From contig NZ_JAQNDO010000001.1 of assembly GCF_028369105.1 (NCBI RefSeq), positions 11,130,501-11,194,500 of the forward strand: a DNA stretch of 64,000 nucleotides, read 5' to 3'. A program made the position numbers and the translations under genes. The notes beneath the pieces are model-generated. The model had not been told where the DNA came from and made no database searches. It saw nothing but the letters and a program-made list of their open reading frames with translations. This stretch comes from Polyangium mundeleinium. Its GTDB lineage: Bacteria; Myxococcota_A; Polyangia; Polyangiales; Polyangiaceae. This document shows positions 4,701 to 32,940 of this stretch, in pieces. The stretch's first letter is position 1. Each line of letters begins with the position of its first letter.

Positions 4701-7293
4701 AGAGCTCCTCGACCTCGGCAGCCTGGAACAGAAAGCTCGCGCGCGCGATCGGCCCGGAGGCACCGTCGGCGAGCTTTTTCAGCGAGGTGACGAGGCGACG
4801 ATGATCCCCCGTGGCGCGGAGCAGGCGCGTGATCTCGAGCCCAGGCATCGGGTGATCGGGGCGCAGCCGCGCGGCCTCCTCGTAGGCCTTCACGGCCTCC
4901 TGCGGGCGCTTGAGGCGGAGCTCGTCGAAGCGCGCGACCTCGATCCAGAGCCCGAACGACCCTGCGGGATCGTTGCGGATGAGCCCGAGGAGCGCTTGTT
5001 TCGCCTCCTCGTTCCGGCCCGCGCGCGTGAGCAGACGGAAGCGCGCGCGCAGCGCGTCCGGGTCGGTCGCCTTCACGGCGAGCGCCCGATCCACGAGATC
5101 GATCGCGCGATCCCGATCGCCCATGCGCTCGCCGACCACGTCCGCGGCACGGAGCAGGAGCCTGCGCTTGAGTGCAGAATCCTGGGTCAGCTCGGACTCG
5201 GCGACGAGCGCCTGCCCGAGCCTGCGGTAATCGCTGGCGCGCTGCGCGTTTCGTTGCATCGCGAGGACCGCGGTGCGCCGCACGGGATCGAGCGCGAGGA
5301 TCTGATCGAGCACCTCCATCGCGCGCTCGGGCTGACCGAGCTCGTCCTCCCAGATGCTCACGAGCTTTTCGAGCAGTGCGATCTTGCGAGGCGCCTCGGC
5401 CTGGGCCTGCGCGGCCTGCGTGTAGAGGTCAATGCGCGCGCGCACGGCCGCGTCGGGCTCGCGCGCGGGCTTCTCCAGGAGCGCGGTGAGCGCGTCGAAG
5501 ATCGCGGCATCGCCGGGGTTCACGGTCCACGCCGCCTTCAGGTAGGCGATGGCGTCCTCGCGCTTGCGCAGGTGCCGCTCGCAGATGTCGGCCGCGCGCA
5601 TGAGCGACGCGACGCGCTGGTGCGCGGGCCGCTCGGCATTGCCCTCCGCAGCCCACACTTCGACGCGACGCTCGTGCCGGCCGAGGCGCTGCAGCGCGCG
5701 GTCGAGCCGCTCTCGCGTCGACTCGTCCACGGGATCGTGCAGGAGCGCCTGCTCGGCGTGAACGGCCGCGTTCTCCGCTTGCCCGAGCGCGTCGTAGATC
5801 TCCGAGAGCCGCACGTGCGCGTGCGCGATCGCCTCCTGCCCGGTCAGCATGGCGAGCTCGCGCTTCCGCGTGATCGAAGCCTGTTCGAGCGCCCCTTCTT
5901 GCTCCTGCAGCCGGCTCAGCTCGGTGAGGATCCGGCGCGCGGTCGGCGTCCCCGCGGGCGCGCGCGAGGTGGCGCGGCCGAGGAGCGAGATCGCCTCGTG
6001 TGGATCCCGCGCTCGCTCCCCCTGGATCCGCGCCGCCGTGTACAGCAGCCGCGAAGCGCGATCATCTTCGAGCTCGTGCTCGGCCTCGGCGGAGAGCGAG
6101 TCGCAGTACGCGCGCGGCTCGTCGTGGCGGACGTGGTGCCGCGAGAGCGCCGCGCGGACCGGCCCCGGCGCGGGTTCGAAGTTGACGGCGCGTTCGAGCG
6201 CCGCGGTCGCGAGCGCCGGTTGCTGGAGCATGTCGTCGAGGACCGCCGCGCGCTCGACGTGGAGCCACGCGGCGAGCCGCGCGTCCCCGTCGGGCTTGCC
6301 CGCCTCGGGGGCATACGCGTCGGCCATGCGTTCGAGATGCTTGGCGAGCGACTCCGCGAGATCACGCCCCTTCGCGCGCTCGATCTCGCGGCGCAGCACC
6401 GCCTCCAGGCCGCGCAGCGCGTGCGGGTGCGCGGGCACGAGCTCGAGGGCCTTTCCGTAGGCCGCGCGCGCCTCGGGCCAGCGCCCGAGATCGGCCGTGG
6501 CGCGCGCGCGCTCGACGAGCAGATCCGCGCGCTCGGCGTCGCTCTCCGCGACCACGAGCTCGTCGTCGATGACCGAGATCCGCTCCAGCCGATCCTCGGG
6601 CTCGAACAGGTGCCGGAGCCGCGACAGCGCCGGGCCGAGCGCGCGCGTGATCGAGCGTGCGGCCGCGAACGAGCGCCGCGCCGCGATCCGATCGTGCTCG
6701 ACGCGCTCCTCGACGAGACCACGCTCGACGAGGGCGCGCGCCGCGGCCACGGGATCGGCGCTCGTGATGCGCTCGGCGCGCCGCGTAAGCTCGACGCCGA
6801 GCGTGACCGGCTCGTTCGAAACTGCCGCGACAGGCTCGGCGGGCGCGACGGCGGGCGCAGTGGGCGCGGCGGGTGCAGCCGCAGGCGTGGCGGCAGGCGC
6901 GGCTCCCGTCGCGACGGTGGTCGCGCGACGCGGCGGCGCGGGACGCCCCGGGACGGGCGGCGGCGCCATCGGCGGCAGCGGTGGCGGCGCCATCGGAGGC
7001 AATTGCGCGGGCGCGGCGGGCTCCGGTGCTGCGCGCACCACGGTCGTCGCGGGCTTCGGCGGGAGCGGCCCCACCGCGGGCACGACCTTGCCGGGCGGCG
7101 CGGGCTTCGGCGCGGACGCGCCTTGCGGCGGCTGCGCGGCTTGCGCGGGCGGCGCGGGCTTTCCGGGCGCGGCGGGCTTCCCCTTGTCCGGCACGTCCCA
7201 GCCCGCGTCCACGGACATCATGGCGGGTCGCGCTTGCGGGGTGGGTTTGTCCTCGGCCTTCGGCTCGTCGGGGCGCTCGTCGTTCTCGGCCAC
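1732..7293 (-). CDS. Giant tetratricopeptide-repeat protein (1853 aa)
   Basis: The first ~170 residues are a Pro/Ala-rich, probably disordered segment. From about residue 180 to ~1500 the protein is a long array of helical TPR-like units, many with the W/L/G/Y-A-A-x-A pattern (for example residues around the phrase WPEARAAYGKALEL). The last ~250 residues look globular and non-repetitive. No signal peptide or membrane helix is visible, so it is probably a cytoplasmic scaffold; partners are unknown. It starts with GTG at 7293, and a candidate -10 lies only ~8 bases upstream. It converges on the HNOB gene with a 9-base gap. A 1909-codon antisense frame overlaps it, but only this strand gives sensible repeat structure and codon bias. 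Confidence 0.85.
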   Translation of the reverse strand: MAENDERPDEPKAEDKPTPQARPAMMSVDAGWDVPDKGKPAAPGKPAPPAQAAQPPQGASAPKPAPPGKVVPAVGPLPPKPATTVVRAAPEPAAPAQLPPMAPPPLPPMAPPPVPGRPAPPRRATTVATGAAPAATPAAAPAAPTAPAVAPAEPVAAVSNEPVTLGVELTRRAERITSADPVAAARALVERGLVEERVEHDRIAARRSFAAARSITRALGPALSRLRHLFEPEDRLERISVIDDELVVAESDAERADLLVERARATADLGRWPEARAAYGKALELVPAHPHALRGLEAVLRREIERAKGRDLAESLAKHLERMADAYAPEAGKPDGDARLAAWLHVERAAVLDDMLQQPALATAALERAVNFEPAPGPVRAALSRHHVRHDEPRAYCDSLSAEAEHELEDDRASRLLYTAARIQGERARDPHEAISLLGRATSRAPAGTPTARRILTELSRLQEQEGALEQASITRKRELAMLTGQEAIAHAHVRLSEIYDALGQAENAAVHAEQALLHDPVDESTRERLDRALQRLGRHERRVEVWAAEGNAERPAHQRVASLMRAADICERHLRKREDAIAYLKAAWTVNPGDAAIFDALTALLEKPAREPDAAVRARIDLYTQAAQAQAEAPRKIALLEKLVSIWEDELGQPERAMEVLDQILALDPVRRTAVLAMQRNAQRASDYRRLGQALVAESELTQDSALKRRLLLRAADVVGERMGDRDRAIDLVDRALAVKATDPDALRARFRLLTRAGRNEEAKQALLGLIRNDPAGSFGLWIEVARFDELRLKRPQEAVKAYEEAARLRPDHPMPGLEITRLLRATGDHRRLVTSLKKLADGASGPIARASFLFQAAEVEELLLGDDQAALATLAAADALSSSPEGAFDPAVVEAMERILVRRRATDELAALYAGWLARHPPASVDHAIRIAFADVLCRKDRREAVGLLEGLTTVVPDHVPALRMLEHLHRSAQAVALADVLRGQAAAARSVIARTGALAHLVTLEERIPSDVVLDALGRVVAERPADSSVHDAIIRIAGRLVEGAISPASTGPAGALLLASITARKSLAREPFARGFFQLEEAILVEAKARGGDASLARASLAGYRDTLALFPDSLLAARGLDRLAGELGDRSALITANRALARIVEGAPRRAGHLVRAAQLTAEEPGLMGEALDLYENALREDPDCEPAARALARGLALDPARLADRLGAALERATSSAQIVLLGTEIGRAVLRHHEAGGTSPDASIGVAAMRRVLAETPDDVPALMLTARLYTAQRLPAEARDAWQRIVSIAAVPEARTAAYFELATLYEGPLADLPRAEQCVQAVLTMEPSNAFALDRLYQIAAKRGDHALAVHALTRLADASPDARTRVDVCLRLAEAQREAGDRAGIVRALCDAIAHGPTDMRPWGALARLYRVETPDGAAQYVAAIGQVLEIASARRLPIDPRWLTTIGLLEVTVLVRPRDGVVHLQQAVALPSAGPEARAALGRGLDAANRNADAVQVLRDVLATDIDALAKTGELSAALAALESALAKDGRAEERLTVEEARACLGDVKPDRITRLRARRMSPEALPPGVFAGPELHRLIVPEAQSPMLLAAAAIAPIAHKALRFELSSLGISSRDRIGSRDNSFTYRLADRIAKSLGIEGFELYLSQTWQGMPRVYPGDPPAIVGPVAFAELPEPEQAFALGRLFVRIALGPTWLDELALESCDALLIAAMRTVDPSFGARDLGPVREQAAQAFSVHVQRAIGRRQRKLLEEILPSAAPGYDIRHLAAGVRRSENRLGYLLSGDLVAAIDHLCRIDRDVARAAEDPRLVVLHPVTGDLLRFALSSPSYAERRRAGTVWTNA

Positions 7294-9706: not shown

Positions 9707-11001
9707 CCCGCCGCGTGGTGCCTCCCCTGCGCCCGCAAGACCTGCGGGATCACGCGGATCCGGCGCGTATCGAGCGCGTCTGGGAGCGGCTCGAGCACGA
9801 TCTGCCCGGACGCCGCGAACCCGAACGCTCACGCATGACGGGCACGCTGATCGCTGTCGCCGCCGCTGCCGTCGCCGCCTTCTGCGCGGGCCTCTACGTC
9901 GGGACGGGCACGAGCCGTGAAGGCGGTCCGACCGAGGTGCGCGCGATCTCGGCCGAAAACAACGCGTCGCCGAGCGTGCTCGCTGCAGGCACCCGGCAAG
10001 CGAGTTATCCGCTGCCCGGCGGCGGCACGTTGACCCTCTCGCCCGGCGCCACCGTTGAGGTCGAGCGCGGCGAAGGCGAAGCCGTCACCTTGCGCCTCCT
10101 GCGCGGCGAGGCCTCTGTGGACACGGCCGGCGCGCCCAAGGCCGCAGAGATCGCGCTCGTCGCCGAGGGCGCGGCCCTCTTCGCGCGCGCGGGCAGCGTG
10201 GTGTTCGTCCGGCGAAACGAGGCCGACATCGACGTGCGCGTGGCGAGTGGATCGGCGCGCGTCTCCTGGCCTGCCGGCTCGCGTGAGCTCTCCGGCGGCG
10301 ACGGCCTCGAAGCCGTGCCGATGATCGCGCTCGCCGAGGCCCCGCACGACGATCCGACGAACCCCGATCCGCGCCCGCGCCGCGCGATCGCGCCGATGCC
10401 GCGCGACATGTCTTCCCGCACGCTCGCGCTGCCGCTGCGCCCCGAAACACCGGCGGTCGCGATCGCGGCGCCCGACTGGCGCGCCAAGTACAACGCAGGC
10501 GAGCTCGCCCAGGCCCTCGAGCTCCTGCGCCAGCAGCCTGGTGGGATCGAAGGCGCCATCGCGTCGTCGAGGAGCGCCGCCGAGCTCGTGGTGATCGGCG
10601 ACATCGCCCGCGCCAAAGGTGGAGATCCTTCCGCGGCGTTGCTCGCGCTCACCCGCGTCGTCGAGGGCTTCCCGAACGATCCTTACGCGGAGATCGCGGC
10701 CTTCACGCTCGGCGGCATGTACGAGAAGATGGGCCAGGCCGATCAAGCACAAAAGTACTTCGAGCGTGCGCGGAGCCTCAAAGGTGTGCTGGCCGAGGAC
10801 GCCCTCTGCAAGCAGATCCGCGCCGAGCACCGCGCCGGTCGGAAGGATGAGGCGGCGCGCATGGGCACGGAGTATTCGAACAAGTACCCCGATGGCCGGT
10901 GCAAGGAGGACGTGGAGCGTATTCTCTCGGGCGAGGAGCCCACGCAGGAGGAGCCCCAAGCATCACCGGACGCGGGAGCCGGCGACGCAAGCGCGCCCTG
11001 A
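9703..11001 (+). CDS. FecR-like transmembrane regulator with periplasmic TPR domain
   Basis: A ~44-residue N-terminal segment, presumably cytoplasmic, is followed by one membrane helix (about 46-66). A FecR-like beta domain at ~90-210 (LPGGGTLTLSPGA, then LRLLRGEAS) would be periplasmic. A C-terminal TPR/YbgF-like region at ~260-400 (YAEIAAFTLGGMYEKMG) follows, then a short acidic tail. In the Fec paradigm such proteins hold an ECF sigma factor at the membrane and relay a periplasmic signal. The coupled position after the sigma gene supports that role, though the short N-terminus is not a classical zinc anti-sigma domain. Confidence 0.85.
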   Translation: MTRRVVPPLRPQDLRDHADPARIERVWERLEHDLPGRREPERSRMTGTLIAVAAAAVAAFCAGLYVGTGTSREGGPTEVRAISAENNASPSVLAAGTRQASYPLPGGGTLTLSPGATVEVERGEGEAVTLRLLRGEASVDTAGAPKAAEIALVAEGAALFARAGSVVFVRRNEADIDVRVASGSARVSWPAGSRELSGGDGLEAVPMIALAEAPHDDPTNPDPRPRRAIAPMPRDMSSRTLALPLRPETPAVAIAAPDWRAKYNAGELAQALELLRQQPGGIEGAIASSRSAAELVVIGDIARAKGGDPSAALLALTRVVEGFPNDPYAEIAAFTLGGMYEKMGQADQAQKYFERARSLKGVLAEDALCKQIRAEHRAGRKDEAARMGTEYSNKYPDGRCKEDVERILSGEEPTQEEPQASPDAGAGDASAP

Positions 11002-17519: not shown

Positions 17520-17855
17520 TCACCCCCTTTTCTTTTTTTTCGACCTCGCCGCCCCAGCTTGCGCGCTGACGGTCACATTGAAGGCGAGCCGATGGATCTC
17601 CTCCACGGCGCGCTCGGCCTCGTCCGGCGTCATCGCGAATCCCGTGAACATCTTGCGCCCGGCATACCGCGCCGGATCGATGCCCTCTGCATTCACGTAG
17701 ATCAAACCGTCACTGCCCAGCGCGAGCTCCGTCGGGAGTTCCGGCGGTGTCTCGTCTTCCTCCGTTCGAACATCTCTCGTTCGTCGTCTCGTCGCCACCG
17801 CCATAACGTCCTTGCGGGTGCTCGTTTTTCGGGGTCGAGCTGATTCCTTTCGCAT
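17520..17855 (-). CDS. Hypothetical basic/acidic small protein (111 aa)
   Basis: I start at ATG 17855 because GAGGG lies seven bases upstream; a TTG 48 bases earlier is possible. The first ~45 residues are basic and disordered. The middle contains a compact conserved-looking segment (~50-95, landmarks LGSDGLIYVNAEGI and GRKMFTGF) and the end is Lys-rich. No family is recognised. It is convergent with the MopE-like lipoprotein gene. Direct repeats and a CTTTGTCT array lie upstream. It could be a small nucleic-acid-associated protein, judging only from charge. Confidence 0.6.
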   Translation of the reverse strand: MRKESARPRKTSTRKDVMAVATRRRTRDVRTEEDETPPELPTELALGSDGLIYVNAEGIDPARYAGRKMFTGFAMTPDEAERAVEEIHRLAFNVTVSAQAGAARSKKKKRG

Positions 17856-17914
17856 GTACGGGCCCTCATTGGGAAGGACGCCGAACTCTGCGTACCTGAC
17901 CAAGGCTCTTCCAT

Positions 17915-18040: not shown

Positions 18041-19099
18041 TCAGCCCGCTTTCGCCTTCGACGTGCCCTGCTCCTCCGCGAGCGCCGCGACGAACGCCCC
18101 GCGAAGCGCCTCGAAGTCCTCGATCGAAAGCGTATGGCTATCCTGGACGAACCCATTGAACCAGTGCTTCGGCGCGCCCGGCCGCAACGACTCCAGGATC
18201 GGACGCGTCCGGATCTCCTTGCCGAGCTCCCCGAGCACCACGAATTTCTTGCGGAATGGCGGAGCCCCGCCGTCCATCCCCCGGATCGAGGGCGCCTCGT
18301 CGCGGTACGTCTCCCCCGTGAACATGCCCATCGCCCGCAGGCCCCGGCCGCGCCCCGTCACGTGGAAAAAAAACGGATCGCCCTTGCCGTACCGCTCGAG
18401 CTCGGCCTGCCTCCGCCGCCCGAAGCTCTTCGTCTGCATGCAGAGCGCGTAGTTCTTCGCCGTCACCACGAGCAGGTGCCGCCGCGCCGACGCCTTGCCG
18501 CGCTGCTCGCCGAGCTTCTCGGCCACCGAAAAGCCGAGCCGAGCCTCGGCCGAAGGGTCCGGCGCGCGCTCGATCGCCGCCCGGCGCGCGGCCCGCAGCG
18601 CCTCGTACTCGGCCTCGAACGCATACGACAGCGGCCACGACAGCTCCGACCAGAAGAGCTCCTCGAACAGCCGCATCGGCCGTTCGAGCTCCGGCTCCGA
18701 CGCGCTCCCCTCGATGCGCACGTTCACCGCGAGATCCCGCGCGAGCCCCGACGCCGCGAGATCCGACGAGCCCACGTAGGCCACGCGCCGCGAGCCGACG
18801 TCGATCACGTAGAGCCGCGGCAGGAACGCCGTCCCGCTCCATGCGTGGTAGATGCGGCAACGCGCGCCCGGCATCCGTTCGAAGCGCCGGAGCATCGCCG
18901 TCTCCGTCCCGTACCCGTCGAGCCCGGAGAGCAGCATCAGCTCACCGCCGCGCTCCACGAACCCCACGAGATCGACCACCCCGAGCGCGCTCGCCTCCGC
19001 GCGGCTCACCGCGATGCAGGCCCGCGTCGCCTCGCCGAGGTCCGCGGCGAGCCGGGCCCCCATCTCTCGGCCGTGACGCAGGAGCTCGATGGTCGCCAT
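18041..19099 (-). CDS. PLD-like / EVE-domain fusion protein (352 aa)
   Basis: I start at ATG 19099; upstream codons of the same frame look non-coding. The N-terminal half (~1-130) resembles the phospholipase-D/NgoFVII-type nuclease fold, ending with GSSDLAASGL (110-119). The catalytic HxKxxxxD is degenerate here: Leu93 for His, Arg95 for Lys, Asp100 kept. Residues ~207-335 match an EVE domain (PUA-like), with KNYAL, then YGKGDPFFFHVTG (237-249), then YRDEAP (~265) and a C-terminal GFVQDSHTLSIEDFE (316-330). EVE domains bind modified bases. Together this suggests a reader of modified DNA or RNA joined to an inactive nuclease scaffold. It diverges from the GST gene with a 127-base gap. Confidence 0.8.
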   Translation of the reverse strand: MATIELLRHGREMGARLAADLGEATRACIAVSRAEASALGVVDLVGFVERGGELMLLSGLDGYGTETAMLRRFERMPGARCRIYHAWSGTAFLPRLYVIDVGSRRVAYVGSSDLAASGLARDLAVNVRIEGSASEPELERPMRLFEELFWSELSWPLSYAFEAEYEALRAARRAAIERAPDPSAEARLGFSVAEKLGEQRGKASARRHLLVVTAKNYALCMQTKSFGRRRQAELERYGKGDPFFFHVTGRGRGLRAMGMFTGETYRDEAPSIRGMDGGAPPFRKKFVVLGELGKEIRTRPILESLRPGAPKHWFNGFVQDSHTLSIEDFEALRGAFVAALAEEQGTSKAKAG

Positions 19100-19226: not shown

Positions 19227-19877
19227 ATGAGCCATGATCCCGAGCGCGAGCTCGTCTACTTCGACATCCGCGGCCGAGCCGAGTCGATCCGCCTTTTGCT
19301 CGCCTATGCGCGGGCCCCGTACGTCGACCGGGGCATCCCGCGCGCCGACTGGCCGAGCCTCAAGAAAACCGTCCCTCTCGGCCAGGTCCCCGTCCTCGTC
19401 GAGCGCACGCCCGCAGGCGAACGCGTGATCCCGCAGAGCCAGGCCATCCTCCGCCACCTCGCCCGCGTCTTCGGGCTCGACGGGACGAACGAGGACGAGC
19501 GCGTCCGCGCCGACGTCGTCGCCGAGACCGTCCTCGAGCTCCGCACCGCGTGGAACCGCGTCGCGTACAACCCTGGCTGGCTCAAGGATCAAGCGGCCAC
19601 CGACGCGCATTTCCGCGACGTCTTCCCCCGCTTCCGCACGACCCTCGAAGGTTTGCTCGAACAATCCGAGGAACGCGGCGCCCTCTACTTCGCGGGCCCC
19701 GCGCCCACGCACGCGGACTTCCTCGCCTTCGACACCCTCGAATCGCACCGCGAGGTCGTCCCCTCCTGCCTCGACGGCCACGGCTCGCTCCAGCGCTTCC
19801 TCGACGACGTCCGCGCCCTGCCCCCGATCGCCGACTACCTCGCCCGCCGCCGCCCCTCGGACTTCCAGCGGGCCTGA
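19227..19877 (+). CDS. Glutathione S-transferase-like protein
   Basis: 216 residues, the normal GST length. The N-terminal thioredoxin-like domain has the sigma/mu-class start ELVYFDIRGRAESIRLLL (8-25), with the catalytic Tyr at ~11 and the glutathione-binding Gln-Ser in VIPQSQAILRHLAR (67-80). The all-helical C-terminal domain runs ~90-205. It would conjugate glutathione to electrophiles or act as a detoxifying or isomerase enzyme in the cytosol. Divergent from the EVE-domain gene; no obvious partner. Confidence 0.9.
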   Translation: MSHDPERELVYFDIRGRAESIRLLLAYARAPYVDRGIPRADWPSLKKTVPLGQVPVLVERTPAGERVIPQSQAILRHLARVFGLDGTNEDERVRADVVAETVLELRTAWNRVAYNPGWLKDQAATDAHFRDVFPRFRTTLEGLLEQSEERGALYFAGPAPTHADFLAFDTLESHREVVPSCLDGHGSLQRFLDDVRALPPIADYLARRRPSDFQRA

Positions 19878-26313: not shown

Positions 26314-29300
26314 CTATTGCGAAGGCCCCCCGAGCCACGCCCCCGAGAGCCTTCGAATGCGCACGTTCCCGGGGACCCGCTCCCCAAAATGCCGGCGGTA
26401 GGAGGGATCTCCGATCGCCAGCTCACGCGCGGAAAGCTCGTCGGCCGCCTCGCGCAACGTCCCCTTCGCCGCCTCCGTGTCCCCGGCGGCCATGAGGGCC
26501 TCGGCGAGCGTGAGGAGCACACGCTCCACCCCGCGCGGGCCAATTTGCCGATGGAGCGCGAGCGCCTCGCGACTCACGTGCACCGCTTCGGCGGGCCGGC
26601 CCCGCGCGAGCAGGACCCTCGATCGGAACCACGCGCACGAGGCGCTGACGATCAGGTTTCCGCGGCTGCTCGTCGCATCGATCCTCGACGCCGCCTCGTC
26701 CACGTCGCCGCGCTCGATATGCGCCTCGATCAGCGTCATCGCGCCGAGCGTGCTGACCACGTTGCCGTCCTTGCCGTGCACCCGCTCCGCCACGGAGCGC
26801 GACACCGTGATCGCCTCCTCGAACCGGCCTTGCGCGAGCCTGAGCTGAGCGAGGTACGCCGCGACCACGTTTGCCGCCATGCTCGGCGGGCGCGCCTCCG
26901 TGCGGTCCAGCCACGACTCGGCCTCCTCGAACGCGCCGAGGTCCGTGCAAATGCCGACGAGCATCCCCGTGACGATCGGCACGATGTGGCGCTCCCCGCC
27001 CTGCTCCAGCGATCGCACGGCATCGAGCGCGTGTTGCCTCGCGAGCCACGGATTGCGGCCGAGGTTCTTCTCCACCATCGCCGACGCATACGCGAGCGCC
27101 CCGGCCCTCGACGGCTCCACCTCGACGCCAGCCCCCATCGTCGCACGAAGTTTTTCCAGGAACACGAACGCGTCGCCATTCCCGCTCGCCGCGAGCGCAG
27201 CGATGAGCGGCGCGAGCGCCCGCGCCAGCGCGGAGAGCGCATTCGGCGCGGGCTCCGTCTGCAAGACCCGCCGGCTCAGGTCCTGCAACGTATCGTGCCT
27301 GCCGAGCAGCATCGCGCCGCCGATGGCGCCCTCCAGCGCGATGCAATGGGCCACGGATCCGGGCGTCGTGCGGCGCAGGGCCTCTTCGGCCGCTGCGAGC
27401 GAGGCCTCGTAATCGCCCGAGGCCGAGGCGATGCGGGCCCGGAGCGCCCAGAGATCCGTCGCGACCTCGTCCGTCGGCCCGGCCGCGAGGCCCCGCTCGA
27501 CGGCCCGCACGCCCGCCTGGAGGTCATTGCCGCGCATCGCCGTCTGCGCCGCCCGCGCGTGCCAGTACGCCGCCTTCTCGCCCTGCCCGCCGCGCTCGAA
27601 ATGCATCGCCAGCACCGAGGGATCCGGCTCGCCCACGCGTTCGAGCCACACCCCCGCGAGCCCATGCCCGAGCGCGCGGTCCCGCTCCGTCAACATCGCA
27701 TACGCCCCCTCCCGCAGGAGCGCGTGCCGGAACGCATACTCCTCCTCGCCGACGAACCGCCGCGAATTCCGACGCATCACGAACTCACGCGCCACGGAGT
27801 AATCGAGGGCGGCATCCACGTTCACAGGCCTGCGACCGCCGAGCAGCCGCCGCACTCCATTGGGCCAGAACACCTCCCCGTAGACGCTCGCCGCGCGCAA
27901 AAAATGGCGAACGTCCGGCGGAAGCGCGGCGAGCCGGGCCTCGACCATCCCGAGCACCGTCTCCGGCAACGCGCCGCTGCTGCGCCCCTCCGTGAAGGCC
28001 CGGACGAGCTCTTCCAGGTAAAACGCGTTTCCCTCCGACCGCGCCACGAAGGCCGTCACGAGCACATCGTCGACGTCGGCCCCGAGCGCCGCGCGCACCA
28101 GCGCGGACGCCGCGCGGCGCGGCAAGGGACCGAGCCGGACCTCGTGCGTCCGCTCCGCCCATATCCGCGGAAACAGATCGTGCACCTCGGGCCGGGCAAA
28201 CGCGACCACCGCGAAGGCCTCGTCCCGCAGCTCGCGCAGCGTCGTATCCACGAGCTTCACGGATGAACCATCCCCCCAGTGCAAATCCTCCAGCACGAGC
28301 AACGTCGGCCCCTTCCGGGCCGCGGCGCGCATGAACTCGACCCAGGCCGACTCGATCCGGCCCGCCATGAGCGGCGCATTCTCGCGGGCCGACCGGAGCA
28401 GGGGATTGCGTTCGTCCGGGAACGCCGCCCCCACGAGCTCGCCCAGGAACGGCGCCGTCCGCTCCGCCGCTTCTCCCGACAGCAGCGCGCGCACCGCCGA
28501 CGATACCTTTTCCTGCTGCACCTCGCGCCGCTCGCCGACCTCGATCTGCATGAGCATGCGCAACGCCGACGCGATCACCGAAAACGCGGCGCCCGAGCGC
28601 ATCGCATCGGCGCGACCCACCGCCAGACACAAATCGGGCACGTTGCTCTGCAGCTTCGTGATGAGCTCCTGCCGCAATCGGGATTTCCCCATCCCCGCGG
28701 GCGCCGTGACGAGCACGGACTGCGCGCGCTGCTCGTCGAACTCTTGCTGCAGGAGATCCAGCAGCGTGGTGAGCTCGCGCTCGCGGCCGACGAACGGGCT
28801 CGGATGGCCGAGCAGCGTACGCGTCTCCTCGCCGCGCGCGTGCTCGTGCAGCAGCCACGCATGGCCGGCGTGCTCCTGCACCTCGAACCGTGGATCGAGC
28901 AGCGCGCGCGTGACCTCGTCGACGATCACCCCGGGTCGGCCGTCCTCGCGCGCGCGATCGATCAGCAATGCCACGAGCTCGACGAGATCCCCGACGGGGA
29001 GCCGATCGGCGAGATCGCTGCGGCCCGTGACGAGCGCGATGGTCCGATCCGACGAGGCCGCTTGAATCGCCAGCGCGGCGCGCGCCGCCCGCAGCACCTG
29101 ATCGGCCGGACTTCCCACGCCCGGCAACACCATCAAGATCGTGCCCCCGGCGAGCGTATCCACGAACGCGCCGAGCGGATCCGCGATGCGACGAACCTCC
29201 GCGAGCGCGCTGCGCGCGGTGCCTGCGATCGCCACGATCGAGAGCAGACGCCGCTCTCGCTCGCTGAGCCGCGACGGCGTCATGCTCCGCACGGACGGCG

Positions 29301-30132
29301 AGCTCGACGACGTGATCCCGCCGATGGCGGAGAGCTCGGCCACGAGGGCCGCCCCATCGTCCGGCCGCTCTCCCGAATCCTTCGAAAGCATGCGCGTGCA
29401 GAGGCTCGACACGGCGGAGGAGACCTCGGGCCGCACGACCGCGAGCTCGGGCGGCTCTTCGAGCAAGAGCTTCGCGAGCAAAGCCATCGGGTGCGAACCC
29501 TGAAATGCCGGTCGTCCTGCCAAACATTCGAAGAGCACGCAGCCGAGCGAGAACACATCGGCGCGCGGCCCCACGACCCCGTCGCCGCGCGCTTGCTCCG
29601 GCGCCATGTAGCCGGGCGTTCCGAGCACGGAGCTCGAGCGCGTGTGCAGGGTCGAGCCGGTCGACGCGCGCGCGATCCCGAAATCGAGAAGCTTGATGCG
29701 ATCGACGCGCCGGCCGACGAGGAAGATGTTGCTCGGCTTGATGTCCCGATGAACGATGCCGCGCGCGTGCGCCGCGGCGAGCCCATCCGCGACGTTGCGC
29801 ACGAGCGCGAGGCCCGCGTCGATTTCGAGGGGCGCGCGCGCGAGGCGCGTGGCGAGGTCCTCGCCGGAGAGCCACTCCATCACGAGGTACGGCTCGCCGT
29901 GGGCCGTCAGCCCGTGCCCGACGTGCCGCACGATGCACGGGTGTTCGAGCCGCGCGAGGATACGCGCCTCGGACAGGAATCGCTCGGCGCCGTGCTCGGG
30001 ATCGCGCAGGACCTTCAGCGCCACGGTCTCGTTCGTCGCGAGCTCGCGGGCGCGCCAGATGGTCCCCATGCCGCCGGAGCTCGCCCGCGACTCCAGCTCG
30101 AACCGCCCGTCCACGATGTCGCCGCTCCGCAT
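26314..30132 (-). CDS. Ser/Thr protein kinase - AAA ATPase - TPR regulator (1272 aa)
   Basis: I start at ATG 30132; an upstream start in the frame would overlap the previous gene. The N-terminal Hanks kinase (~10-270) has a Gly-loop at ~18-25, Lys40, HRDIKPSN (~127) and DFG, so it should be active. A region at ~315-440 recalls a degenerate nucleotide-cyclase homology domain. An AAA/STAND ATPase follows, with Walker A (APAGMGKSR, ~480) and Walker B (LLVLEDLHWGD). The C-terminal half (~800-1250) is a TPR-like helical array. This large one-component regulator architecture is common in myxobacteria. It is coupled to the oxygenase gene, seven bases upstream. Confidence 0.9.
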   Translation of the reverse strand: MRSGDIVDGRFELESRASSGGMGTIWRARELATNETVALKVLRDPEHGAERFLSEARILARLEHPCIVRHVGHGLTAHGEPYLVMEWLSGEDLATRLARAPLEIDAGLALVRNVADGLAAAHARGIVHRDIKPSNIFLVGRRVDRIKLLDFGIARASTGSTLHTRSSSVLGTPGYMAPEQARGDGVVGPRADVFSLGCVLFECLAGRPAFQGSHPMALLAKLLLEEPPELAVVRPEVSSAVSSLCTRMLSKDSGERPDDGAALVAELSAIGGITSSSSPSVRSMTPSRLSERERRLLSIVAIAGTARSALAEVRRIADPLGAFVDTLAGGTILMVLPGVGSPADQVLRAARAALAIQAASSDRTIALVTGRSDLADRLPVGDLVELVALLIDRAREDGRPGVIVDEVTRALLDPRFEVQEHAGHAWLLHEHARGEETRTLLGHPSPFVGRERELTTLLDLLQQEFDEQRAQSVLVTAPAGMGKSRLRQELITKLQSNVPDLCLAVGRADAMRSGAAFSVIASALRMLMQIEVGERREVQQEKVSSAVRALLSGEAAERTAPFLGELVGAAFPDERNPLLRSARENAPLMAGRIESAWVEFMRAAARKGPTLLVLEDLHWGDGSSVKLVDTTLRELRDEAFAVVAFARPEVHDLFPRIWAERTHEVRLGPLPRRAASALVRAALGADVDDVLVTAFVARSEGNAFYLEELVRAFTEGRSSGALPETVLGMVEARLAALPPDVRHFLRAASVYGEVFWPNGVRRLLGGRRPVNVDAALDYSVAREFVMRRNSRRFVGEEEYAFRHALLREGAYAMLTERDRALGHGLAGVWLERVGEPDPSVLAMHFERGGQGEKAAYWHARAAQTAMRGNDLQAGVRAVERGLAAGPTDEVATDLWALRARIASASGDYEASLAAAEEALRRTTPGSVAHCIALEGAIGGAMLLGRHDTLQDLSRRVLQTEPAPNALSALARALAPLIAALAASGNGDAFVFLEKLRATMGAGVEVEPSRAGALAYASAMVEKNLGRNPWLARQHALDAVRSLEQGGERHIVPIVTGMLVGICTDLGAFEEAESWLDRTEARPPSMAANVVAAYLAQLRLAQGRFEEAITVSRSVAERVHGKDGNVVSTLGAMTLIEAHIERGDVDEAASRIDATSSRGNLIVSASCAWFRSRVLLARGRPAEAVHVSREALALHRQIGPRGVERVLLTLAEALMAAGDTEAAKGTLREAADELSARELAIGDPSYRRHFGERVPGNVRIRRLSGAWLGGPSQ

Positions 30133-30139
30133 GCGCGCC

Positions 30140-30703
30140 TCACACCGGACTGTAAAGGATGTCCGTGCGCAGGACGAACTTCTCACCGCGGGCCACCTGG
30201 CTCGCGATATGGAGGATCCGGTGCTGGAACAGCAATGCGCGCCCGCGCCGCGGGGTGATGCGCCGTTCGAGCTCCGGAAAATCGGTCTCGCCGCCCTCGA
30301 AGTCGTCGTTCAGGTAAAAGACGAGCGTGACCAGGCTGCGCACGCCGCCGTCGAGGTGCACGACCGTGTCCCAGTGCGCCCCGTGTTGCTCGCCGGGGCC
30401 GTATCGATACAGGCGGATGCGCGGGTTGCCGCCCGCGAGCTTCATGCCCATCAGGAGCTTCGGCACGTGCGGCGCGACCCGCGCGACGAGCCCGTCGGCC
30501 TCCGCCGCGTCGTCCCACATCACGCGCGTGTTGTTCCGGACCTCGAGATCGACCTCCGGCTCCCCGTCCTCGCCCACGATCGGCGCGATCTCTGCGTGCC
30601 CTGTCCGGATGCGCTCGATATACGCGTCGCAGTCGGCGGGCGAGAGTGCGTCGTCCACCGTCCAGACGAGGGGCTGCGTCAAGTCGAGGTGACCGGCGTA
30701 CAT
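30140..30703 (-). CDS. 2-oxoglutarate/Fe(II) oxygenase (prolyl-4-hydroxylase-like)
   Basis: 187 residues matching the P4H/2OG-Fe(II) family. The metal triad appears as HWD (in GAHWDTVV, ~115) and the distal His in HRILHIAS (~161-168). The 2OG-anchoring basic residue follows in EKFVLRTDILY. The N-terminal helical part is typical of procollagen-like or PHD-type oxygenases. It hydroxylates protein prolines, or less often small molecules; the substrate is not visible here. It is seven bases upstream of the giant kinase gene on the same strand, so the two are probably co-transcribed. Confidence 0.87.
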   Translation of the reverse strand: MYAGHLDLTQPLVWTVDDALSPADCDAYIERIRTGHAEIAPIVGEDGEPEVDLEVRNNTRVMWDDAAEADGLVARVAPHVPKLLMGMKLAGGNPRIRLYRYGPGEQHGAHWDTVVHLDGGVRSLVTLVFYLNDDFEGGETDFPELERRITPRRGRALLFQHRILHIASQVARGEKFVLRTDILYSPV

Positions 30704-32056: not shown

Positions 32057-32274
32057 CGCCGACCCATTCTATGGCGGAGCGCCGAAAAACCCTAGCGCGA
32101 CGAACATCCCTCCTGCGTGAGCGAGACCTCCTCGCGGGATTTGGGGCGTCGCTCGGCGGGCCCGCGCGAAGCCCCGCGCACCAAGGACGTGGTCGCGCCG
32201 CTTCGCGCGTGCTCTTCTTGACGTCCCGCACGAAAGGAGCTCGGCACGACGATTGCGTCGAGCGCGTCCCCGTC

Positions 32275-32940
32275 ATGGATCCGATGGAGCAAGCGCGTCA
32301 CCAGATGGTGGACGAACAACTCGCACGCCGCGACATCGAGGACCCGCGGGTGCTCGATGCGATGCGTCGCGTCCCGCGGCACGCCTTCGTGCCCGCCGGG
32401 CGCGAGCCCGAGGCGTACCTCGACAGACCGCTCCCAATCGCCGAAGGCCAGACGATCTCGCAGCCGTACATCGTCGCGCTCACCGCGCAAGCCCTGCGGA
32501 TCGGGCCGAACGCGCGGGTCCTCGAGATCGGCGCGGGCTCGGGGTACGCCGCGGCGGTGCTCGCCGAACTCGCGCGCGAGGTCGTCACCGTCGAGCGCCA
32601 CCCGCTCCTCGCCGCCGAGGCCGCCGCGAGGCTCGTGTCGCTCCGCTACGCAAACATCCGGGTGGTCACTGGAGATGGCACCCGTGGATATCCCGAACGC
32701 GCACCTTATGATGCCATCGCGGTGACGGCGAGCGGGCCGCGTGTACCGCAGGCGCTTTTGCACCAGCTCGCGCCGGGCGGCCGTATGGTGATTCCGGTCG
32801 GGCCGGACGAACACCAGCAAGAGCTCGTCCTCGTCACGCGGGGCGCGGAAGACGGCGTGTTCTCCGAGCAAAACCTCGGCGCGGTGCGGTTCGTCCCGCT
32901 CGTCGGCGAGGACGGCTGGGCCCGGGCGGACGGCAGGTAA
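32275..32940 (+). CDS. pcm: Protein-L-isoaspartate O-methyltransferase
   Basis: 221 residues, the family norm. Typical family landmarks are MVDEQLARRDIEDPRVLDAM (~11-30), VPRHAFVP (~33), the GQTISQP motif (~60), and the SAM-binding VLEIGAGSGYAAAVLA (~83). The enzyme uses S-adenosylmethionine to methylate isoaspartyl residues and start repair of damaged proteins. ATG 32275 and ATG 32284 are both possible starts. It is the first of three same-strand genes that end with the alkylation-repair gene. Confidence 0.93.
   Translation: MDPMEQARHQMVDEQLARRDIEDPRVLDAMRRVPRHAFVPAGREPEAYLDRPLPIAEGQTISQPYIVALTAQALRIGPNARVLEIGAGSGYAAAVLAELAREVVTVERHPLLAAEAAARLVSLRYANIRVVTGDGTRGYPERAPYDAIAVTASGPRVPQALLHQLAPGGRMVIPVGPDEHQQELVLVTRGAEDGVFSEQNLGAVRFVPLVGEDGWARADGR

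What the first reader, a model, noticed from the sequence alone, without database searches (positions are those of the whole stretch)
18041..19099. PLD-like/EVE fusion with a degenerate HKD motif
EVE domains recognise modified bases and are found in restriction and RNA-modification proteins. Here one follows a PLD/NgoFVII-like nuclease fold whose HxK has become Leu/Arg while the Asp and GSSDL are kept. It may be a reader with a dead nuclease scaffold, or an unusual active enzyme. It is divergent from a GST rather than in a defence island.
Basis: partly seen in the sequence, partly recalled or inferred. Interest (0 to 1): 0.58.

Follow-up and report, generated by a model that had tools for sequence, protein, structure and literature searches.

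The report
Dead nuclease fused to base reader
A soil bacterium of the genus Polyangium carries a protein that looks like a DNA-cutting defence enzyme whose cutting site has been lost while the part that recognises chemically marked bases is still well conserved, so it probably now only binds rather than cuts.

Summary
The ORF at 18041-19099 (-), 352 aa, is real. Residues 1-165 have a phospholipase-D (PLD) nuclease fold and residues 205-340 an EVE (UPF0310) fold. Of 57 distinct PLD sequences aligned, 50 keep H, K, N and E; the six Polyangium orthologues have L/V, R, D, A; one is a broken copy that ends before the E.

The gene lies in a shared neighbourhood in six Polyangium genomes. It is under purifying selection, strongest in the EVE half (pooled dN/dS 0.10-0.13; PLD half 0.17-0.51). 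Relatives with an intact site lie elsewhere: a low-GC insertion in P. fumosum, and stretches near an integrase or defence-candidate genes.

Best reading: a modification-dependent restriction enzyme of the published PLDc-EVE type that lost catalysis before these six species diverged and persists as a probably dimeric, non-cutting reader. The fusion is published (PMC7641849); my searches found no description of this dead version. Ligand and cellular role are untested.

The parts
18041..19099 (-). 352-aa pseudo-PLD/EVE fusion protein (P0001)
18605..19099 (-). N-terminal PLD-fold domain, residues 1-165
   Evidence: AlphaFold2 model (mean pLDDT 74.5) and PDB fold matches; PLDc_2 hits in relatives
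18800..18826 (-). FLPRLYVID (residues 92-100): degenerate HxK; L93 replaces catalytic His, R95 replaces Lys, D100 retained
   Evidence: alignments
18761..18772 (-). GSSD (residues 110-113): D113 replaces the conserved Asn of GSxN
18728..18736 (-). D122-L-A124: replaces the N-x-E of the intact fusions; Glu lost
18488..18604 (-). helical linker, residues 166-204
   Evidence: secondary structure
18080..18487 (-). C-terminal EVE (PUA-superfamily, UPF0310-like) domain, residues 205-340
   Evidence: profile hit to PH1033; fold matches Z 14.8 (PH1033) and 13.4 (MJECL36), then YTH domains and the VcaM4I EVE
18422..18424 (-). F226, in place of the Trp of WG in PH1033, MJECL36, L035 and L040; possible pocket residue
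   Evidence: pocket role inferred
18254..18256 (-). F282, in place of Trp (L035, L040) or Tyr (PH1033, MJECL36) of P-x-R; possible pocket residue
   Evidence: pocket role inferred
19227..19877 (+). divergent glutathione S-transferase neighbour (context, probably not part of the function)
   Evidence: Pfam GST_C_3 1.6e-11; not found beside the gene in 1 of 6 genomes

Best explanation
The protein descends from a modification-dependent (type IV-like) PLDc-EVE restriction endonuclease. Before the six Polyangium species diverged, the nuclease active site was lost (H to L/V, K to R, N to D, E to A) and the gene became settled at one chromosomal locus. The PLD-fold half now most likely serves as a dimerisation or positioning scaffold, and the EVE half as the working part: it binds a modified, probably flipped-out base in DNA or RNA without cutting, acting by occupancy (steric block, marking or recruitment). 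Shown here: domain architecture, loss of four active-site residues, presence at one locus in six species, purifying selection strongest in the EVE half, and intact accessory relatives. Inferred: restriction-enzyme ancestry (from the intact relatives and the published class), dimerisation, lack of catalysis, ligand, cellular role.
For: Fold of both halves. EVE by profile-sequence match 1.5e-5 to PH1033. H-K-N-E in 50 of 57 distinct aligned PLD sequences, L/V-R-D-A in 6 of 57, all Polyangium; the 57th is the broken G173 copy with H-K-N. In SauUSI (PMC7913695, passages read) H119 and K121 of both protomers and N143 contact phosphate-mimicking sulfates, and the site is formed between two protomers; the equivalents here are L93, R95 and D113 by the alignment, so a homodimer would have no His at the site. 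Six of six Polyangium genomes share the locus. Pooled dN/dS: whole gene 0.17 among five species, 0.34 against the sixth; EVE 0.13 and 0.10. The intact relative in P. fumosum lies at another site, GC 0.60-0.63 over L035 5601-7200 against 0.70-0.74 beyond, and is missing from that site in 5 of 5 congeners.
Against: No binding or activity data. The pocket was not mapped residue by residue, and two positions that are Trp in the intact relatives (Trp/Tyr in two solved EVE proteins) are Phe in all six orthologues, so specificity may have changed or weakened. Against the sixth species (G152) the PLD half is closer to relaxed (dN/dS 0.51), and the whole gene (0.34) is less constrained than the GST (0.27), though not than the small gene 17520-17903 (0.47); this fits a decaying scaffold as well as a useful one. 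The model is only moderately confident (pLDDT 74.5) and residues 112-123, at the lost site, are under 50. K to R alone is thought to keep activity in BrxL HRD variants (PMC12839542, passage read). D100 is retained. The Pfam EVE model does not match the protein.
Confidence: 0.6

Rival explanations
1. A decaying remnant: the enzyme lost catalysis and the gene is on its way out, kept so far by chance or by weak residual selection.
For: Against G152 the PLD half has dN/dS 0.51, the linker 0.60, and the whole gene 0.34 against 0.27 for the GST. A related copy in G173 is visibly broken by a stop and a frame change.
Against: Six of six species keep an open frame. Among the other five species the whole-gene dN/dS (0.17) is no higher than that of the neighbouring GST (0.20). 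EVE half 0.10-0.13 in both comparisons.
Confidence: 0.15
2. A regulator of active PLD-EVE nucleases: because PLD nucleases form one active site from two protomers, a dead protomer could form mixed dimers with an invading or co-resident active enzyme and silence it.
For: The P. fumosum genome encodes both an intact and a dead version. The SauUSI active site is built from both protomers (PMC7913695, passages).
Against: One search showed an intact full-length partner in only 1 of 6 Polyangium genomes; the two proteins are only about 41-44% identical. Protection of the host's own 5mC is not supported as a general reason: no PF00145 match at E 1e-10 in 4 of 6 genomes, the window's own included.
Confidence: 0.08
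3. Still an active enzyme with an unorthodox active site.
For: D100 and much of the motif strand (FxPxLYVxD) remain; arginine can stand in for the lysine in some HKD nucleases according to PMC12839542 (passage).
Against: The nucleophilic His is Leu or Val, and K, N and E are lost together, in all six orthologues. The phosphohistidine mechanism described for BfiI/SauUSI (passages) needs the His. Two His of the PLD half are conserved in the six (H9, H85), but neither aligns with the site, H9 is absent from both intact fusions and H85 is present in one of them.
Confidence: 0.07
4. The EVE half no longer reads modified DNA but binds RNA or a small ligand, and the protein works in RNA metabolism or sensing.
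For: The model also resembles YTH domains, readers of m6A in RNA; two aromatic positions changed from Trp/Tyr to Phe in all six orthologues.
Against: No RNA-metabolism gene recognised among the window neighbours scanned; aromatic character is retained.
Confidence: 0.1

Closest known systems
PLDc-EVE fusion proteins predicted as modification-dependent restriction enzymes (Bell et al. 2020, PMC7641849; section 9 and passages read)
   Same: Same two domains in one chain.
   Different: Described there as fusions with nucleases; the parts I read do not mention a version with a lost active site. Their sequences were not compared.
SauUSI (PDB 7clg; PMC7913695, passages read), type IV restriction enzyme with N-terminal PLD domain
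   Same: PLD domain fold (VIA Z 14.6 over residues 1-168); recognises modified cytosine through a target-recognition (SRA) domain, like EVE of the PUA superfamily.
VcaM4I, EVE-HNH endonuclease (PMC7897488, passages read)
   Same: EVE fold (Z 11.3); a reader fused to a nuclease scaffold.
   Different: VcaM4I has EVE first and an active HNH domain; here the scaffold is PLD, placed first, and appears inactive.
FAM83 / DUF1669 pseudo-PLDs (PMC6008594, passages read)
   Same: PLD-like domain whose catalytic His is lost (all members but FAM83D) and which serves as a binding module; fold match Z 14.5.
   Different: Vertebrate CK1 anchors; no EVE domain; only a shared fold and a similar fate.
TrmB/TrmBL2 archaeal regulators (PDB 5bqt, 5box, 3qph)
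   Same: Residues 1-158 match part of them at Z 12.5-13.1.
   Different: They are DNA-binding regulators with an HTH domain (recalled), not EVE fusions; only a shared fold is shown.

Membership tests
PLDc-EVE modification-dependent restriction endonuclease | PLD-fold domain and EVE domain in one chain | tested here: met
PLDc-EVE modification-dependent restriction endonuclease | intact HxK catalytic motif (with GSxN) | tested here: not met
   L/V-R-D-A at H-K-N-E in 6 of 6 orthologues
PLDc-EVE modification-dependent restriction endonuclease | cleavage dependent on a modified base | not testable with these tools
   needs purified protein
PLDc-EVE modification-dependent restriction endonuclease | accessory (mobile or variable) location, usual for restriction genes but not strictly defining | tested here: not met
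   same neighbours in 6 of 6 genomes. Of 10 neighbouring window proteins scanned with PADLOC, 7 had no hit and 3 hit kinase, 2OG and mad2 models; by Pfam these three are a kinase-AAA-TPR protein, a 2OG oxygenase and a PCMT
EVE/UPF0310 domain family | sequence similarity to EVE/UPF0310 proteins | tested here: met
   profile hits 1wmm 1.5e-5 and 2p5d 0.0022; but the Pfam EVE model does not match P0001 and reaches only 0.094, under its cut-off, in L040
EVE/UPF0310 domain family | PUA-like EVE fold | tested here: met
   PH1033 Z 14.8, rmsd 2.1, 124 aligned
EVE/UPF0310 domain family | intact modified-base pocket | tested here: inconclusive
   two aromatic positions are Phe in place of Trp/Tyr; hhalign of the C-terminal half to 28 standalone EVE domains gave only a 36-column match at probability 25% (0.5% for the N-terminal half as control)
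PLD superfamily | PLD fold | tested here: met
   NucT Z 14.9, Nuc Z 14.3, SauUSI Z 14.6
PLD superfamily | dimer forming one composite active site | not tested
   no complex prediction was available; the His, Lys and Asn of the site are absent anyway

The most novel reading that the evidence does not exclude
A bacterial restriction enzyme that has been domesticated into a pure epigenetic reader: after loss of its nuclease, Polyangium kept the dimeric pseudo-PLD/EVE protein as a genus-wide core factor that binds modified bases in its own or invading nucleic acid and acts by occupancy, much as FAM83 proteins reuse a dead PLD fold as a binding module.
Probability: 0.35. Interest if true: 0.65.

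Novelty: new variant of a known kind. Interest (0 to 1): 0.42.

Why it matters
Inactivated domains are known in larger defence machines (an inactivated PD-(D/E)xK fold in CoCoNuTs, an inactive LonP in BrxL; PMC11090510 and PMC12839542, passages). Here a whole small restriction-type protein appears to have lost its blade and been kept at one locus through a genus, which is a clean case for asking what a reader without a nuclease does. The six-species set plus an intact cousin in the same genus gives a ready natural comparison.

Tried and rejected
Direct Pfam/NCBIfam search of P0001: nothing; PADLOC only a weak type IV match at 0.0098. phmmer of P0001 alone against PDB sequences gave 4 matches, best E 0.2, which I take as chance. 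Plasmids with P0001: none. Plasmids with the intact relative: 6 records, matching within query residues 23-195 of 364, that is the PLD half; the two aligned have C-terminal parts that do not align with the EVE half. Phages and viral contigs (42 pattern stretches, none confirmed): no relatives. The genome-contig scan confirmed 4 of 60 pattern stretches, all Polyangium; it finds close relatives only.

A functional link to the GST was considered and is disfavoured: it was not found beside the gene in 1 of 6 genomes (L033). 'Nuclease lost because the host methylates its own cytosines' was considered: PF00145 matches at E 1e-10 in only 2 of 6 Polyangium genomes and not in the window's own, so it is not supported for C5; other methyltransferases were not searched. 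A defence island around the gene was considered: the PADLOC kinase and mad2 hits 7-13 kb away are a kinase-AAA-TPR protein and a PCMT by Pfam, so I do not read them as a defence system. hhalign to 28 standalone EVE domains was weak (2 of 30 extracted domains were left out because my coordinates gave stops). The second structure prediction (intact relative, A3) was poor (pLDDT 53.1) and not used. Promoter/terminator scan uninformative. Rfam: none in the window.

Limits: profile and protein searches of whole genomes covered Myxococcota only (183 genomes of the order; 377 drawn from the phylum, overlapping the first set). Each search scored a limited number of candidates per genome. The profile holds two intact sequences and so may favour intact hits, although P0001 alone found relatives of the same kind. 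Of 95 rows in the alignment behind the count, 4 were dropped because more than three of six key positions were unaligned; all 4 are downstream pieces of the broken G173 copy. The other 91 rows collapse to 57 distinct sequences.

Whether all Polyangium genomes held have the gene: the five same-genus genomes seen all match, and no same-genus genome is among the non-matches it lists, but 128 non-matches are not listed.

Full report
OBSERVATION. The ORF at 18041-19099 on the minus strand gives 352 residues without a stop. It has no Pfam or NCBIfam match of its own and only a weak PADLOC type IV restriction match over residues 49-171 (0.0098). It is nevertheless a real gene: six Polyangium genomes, the window's own included, have it at 85-95% identity. 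The genus is known from genome contigs, which gave four named relatives: P. fumosum DSM 14668 and strains 15x6, 6x1 and y55x31 (I match them to G148, G151, G150 and G149 by equal contig lengths). The frame is open in all six.

ARCHITECTURE. AlphaFold2 on an 8-row alignment gave pLDDT 74.5. VIA-align put residues 1-157 on NucT (Z 14.9, rmsd 2.3, 143 aligned) and 1-168 on the PLD domain of the type IV restriction enzyme SauUSI (Z 14.6); NgoAVII and BfiI are in the Foldseek list. Residues 205-337 fit the UPF0310 protein PH1033 (Z 14.8, rmsd 2.1, 124 aligned), followed by MJECL36 (13.4), YTH domains and the EVE-HNH enzyme VcaM4I (11.3). Sequence alone agrees: the family profile hits PH1033 at 1.5e-5 and MJECL36 at 0.0022; SauUSI is only at 0.38. 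Relatives at 38-44% identity hit PLDc_2 at 8.3e-10 and 5.7e-8.

ACTIVE SITE. I aligned all open stretches of 100 or more residues in the loci then held to the family profile (E 1e-6) and read the key positions. Of 57 distinct sequences, 50 have His, Lys, Asn (of GSxN) and Glu; 5 have Leu, Arg, Asp, Ala; 1 has Val, Arg, Asp, Ala; and 1 is the broken G173 copy, which ends before the Glu. The six exceptions are exactly the six Polyangium orthologues. Two other full-length PLD-EVE proteins, L035 (second copy in P. fumosum) and L040 (G400), have the intact residues. In SauUSI, H119, K121 (both protomers) and N143 line the phosphate path, and the site is formed between two protomers (PMC7913695, passages read). 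The aligned residues here are L93, R95 and D113. K to R alone may be harmless (BrxL HRD variants, PMC12839542, passage read); loss of the His nucleophile together with N and E should not be.

SELECTION. Nei-Gojobori with Jukes-Cantor, pooled. Among five species (10 pairs) dN/dS is 0.17 for the gene, 0.17 for PLD, 0.21 for the linker and 0.13 for EVE. Against the sixth species, G152 (5 pairs), it is 0.34, 0.51, 0.60 and 0.10. Neighbours among the five: GST 0.20 (6 pairs), the 19930-22869 gene 0.22, LTD protein 0.33, small gene 17520-17903 0.36, the 23550-24833 gene 0.13. Neighbours against G152: GST 0.27 (4 pairs), small gene 0.47. So among the five species the gene is kept about as well as its neighbours. 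In the comparison with G152 it is somewhat freer than the GST, because of the PLD half and linker; the EVE half stays tight in both comparisons.

CONTEXT. A gene with a histidine-kinase-type ATPase domain, a gene with a MopE metal-binding motif (both by Pfam), the small gene and PLD-EVE lie together in all six genomes; the GST is beside it in 5 of 6. Of ten neighbouring window proteins scanned with PADLOC, seven had no hit and three hit kinase, 2OG and mad2 models. By Pfam these are a kinase-AAA-TPR protein, a 2OG oxygenase and a protein-isoaspartate methyltransferase, so I see no defence island. The intact relatives are different. In P. fumosum the intact gene sits between a DUF6882 gene and a tRNA-synt_His-domain gene, in DNA of GC 0.60-0.63 over L035 5601-7200 against 0.70-0.74 beyond. 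In 5 of 5 congeners those two genes lie about 0-355 bp apart by their match ends, and the 5-kb stretches searched hold no intact PLD-EVE. In G400 it lies next to a second PLD-like gene, a type IV-like fragment cut by the contig end, and a phage-type integrase. In G173 the broken copy lies near DUF5131 and PADLOC defence candidates PDC-M30/M41. In these few cases, intact goes with accessory and dead with core.

READER HALF. In VcaM4I the flipped base is stacked by P24, W82 and Y130 (PMC7897488, abstract and passages read). I could not map these residue by residue. By the PH1033 and MJECL36 alignments the Trp of WG is F226 and the Tyr of P-Y-R is F282; L035 and L040 have Trp at both, and the six Polyangium proteins have Phe at both. 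If these are pocket residues, as I infer, aromatic stacking is kept but specificity may have moved.

MECHANISM. Most likely a non-cutting, probably dimeric reader of a modified base, derived from a modification-dependent restriction enzyme. Shown: folds, loss of four site residues, presence at one locus in six species, selection pattern, accessory intact cousins. Inferred: ancestry as a restriction enzyme, dimer, lack of activity, ligand, role. Rivals: decay, inhibitor of active relatives by mixed dimers, unorthodox enzyme, RNA reader.

KNOWN AND NEW. EVE fusions with PLDc nucleases are reported as numerous by Bell et al. 2020 (PMC7641849, section 9 and passages read), so the fusion is not new. 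Pseudo-PLDs are known in FAM83 (PMC6008594, passages read). Searches of the held library: 'EVE domain' with 'phospholipase D' and 'modified base' gave 4 listings (3 of the 4 read in passages, the fourth a preprint of one of them); 'EVE domain' with 'Polyangium', 0; 'phospholipase D', 'pseudoenzyme', 'HKD motif' and 'restriction' together, 0; PLD pseudo-nuclease in anti-phage context, 0; a broader search listed 10 of 46 papers, none titled on a dead PLD-EVE protein. Subscription papers and supplements were not seen. I therefore call it a new variant of a known kind.

Noticed in passing
L035:6072-7166 (P. fumosum, G148 contig 123): Intact PLD-EVE gene in low-GC DNA between a DUF6882 gene and a tRNA-synt_His-domain gene that are neighbours without it in 5 of 5 other Polyangium genomes.
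   Followed up: yes
L095:3-2617 and 5115-5732 (G400): Intact PLD-EVE gene followed directly (stop and start overlap) by a second PLD-like gene with HxK and GSxN, near a type IV-like fragment and a phage integrase: a possible two-gene PLD system.
   Followed up: partly
L036:388-1596 and 10005-10955 (G173): Two gene calls with long identical stretches (the first is a Methyltransf_33 histidine methyltransferase by Pfam) flank the region with the broken PLD-EVE copy and the PDC-M30/M41 candidates; could be an integration duplication or an assembly effect.
   Followed up: no
L036:5473-6530 (G173): PLD-EVE relative broken by a stop at the conserved Glu position and a later frame change.
   Followed up: partly
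window 26314-30186 (-): 1290-aa kinase-AAA-TPR protein that scores against the PADLOC PD-T4-6 and mad6 kinase models; probably an ordinary myxobacterial kinase.
   Followed up: partly
window 32071-32940 (+): Partial match (1.2e-23, residues 114-245) to the PADLOC mad2 model, but a PCMT protein-isoaspartate methyltransferase by Pfam (8.3e-61).
   Followed up: partly
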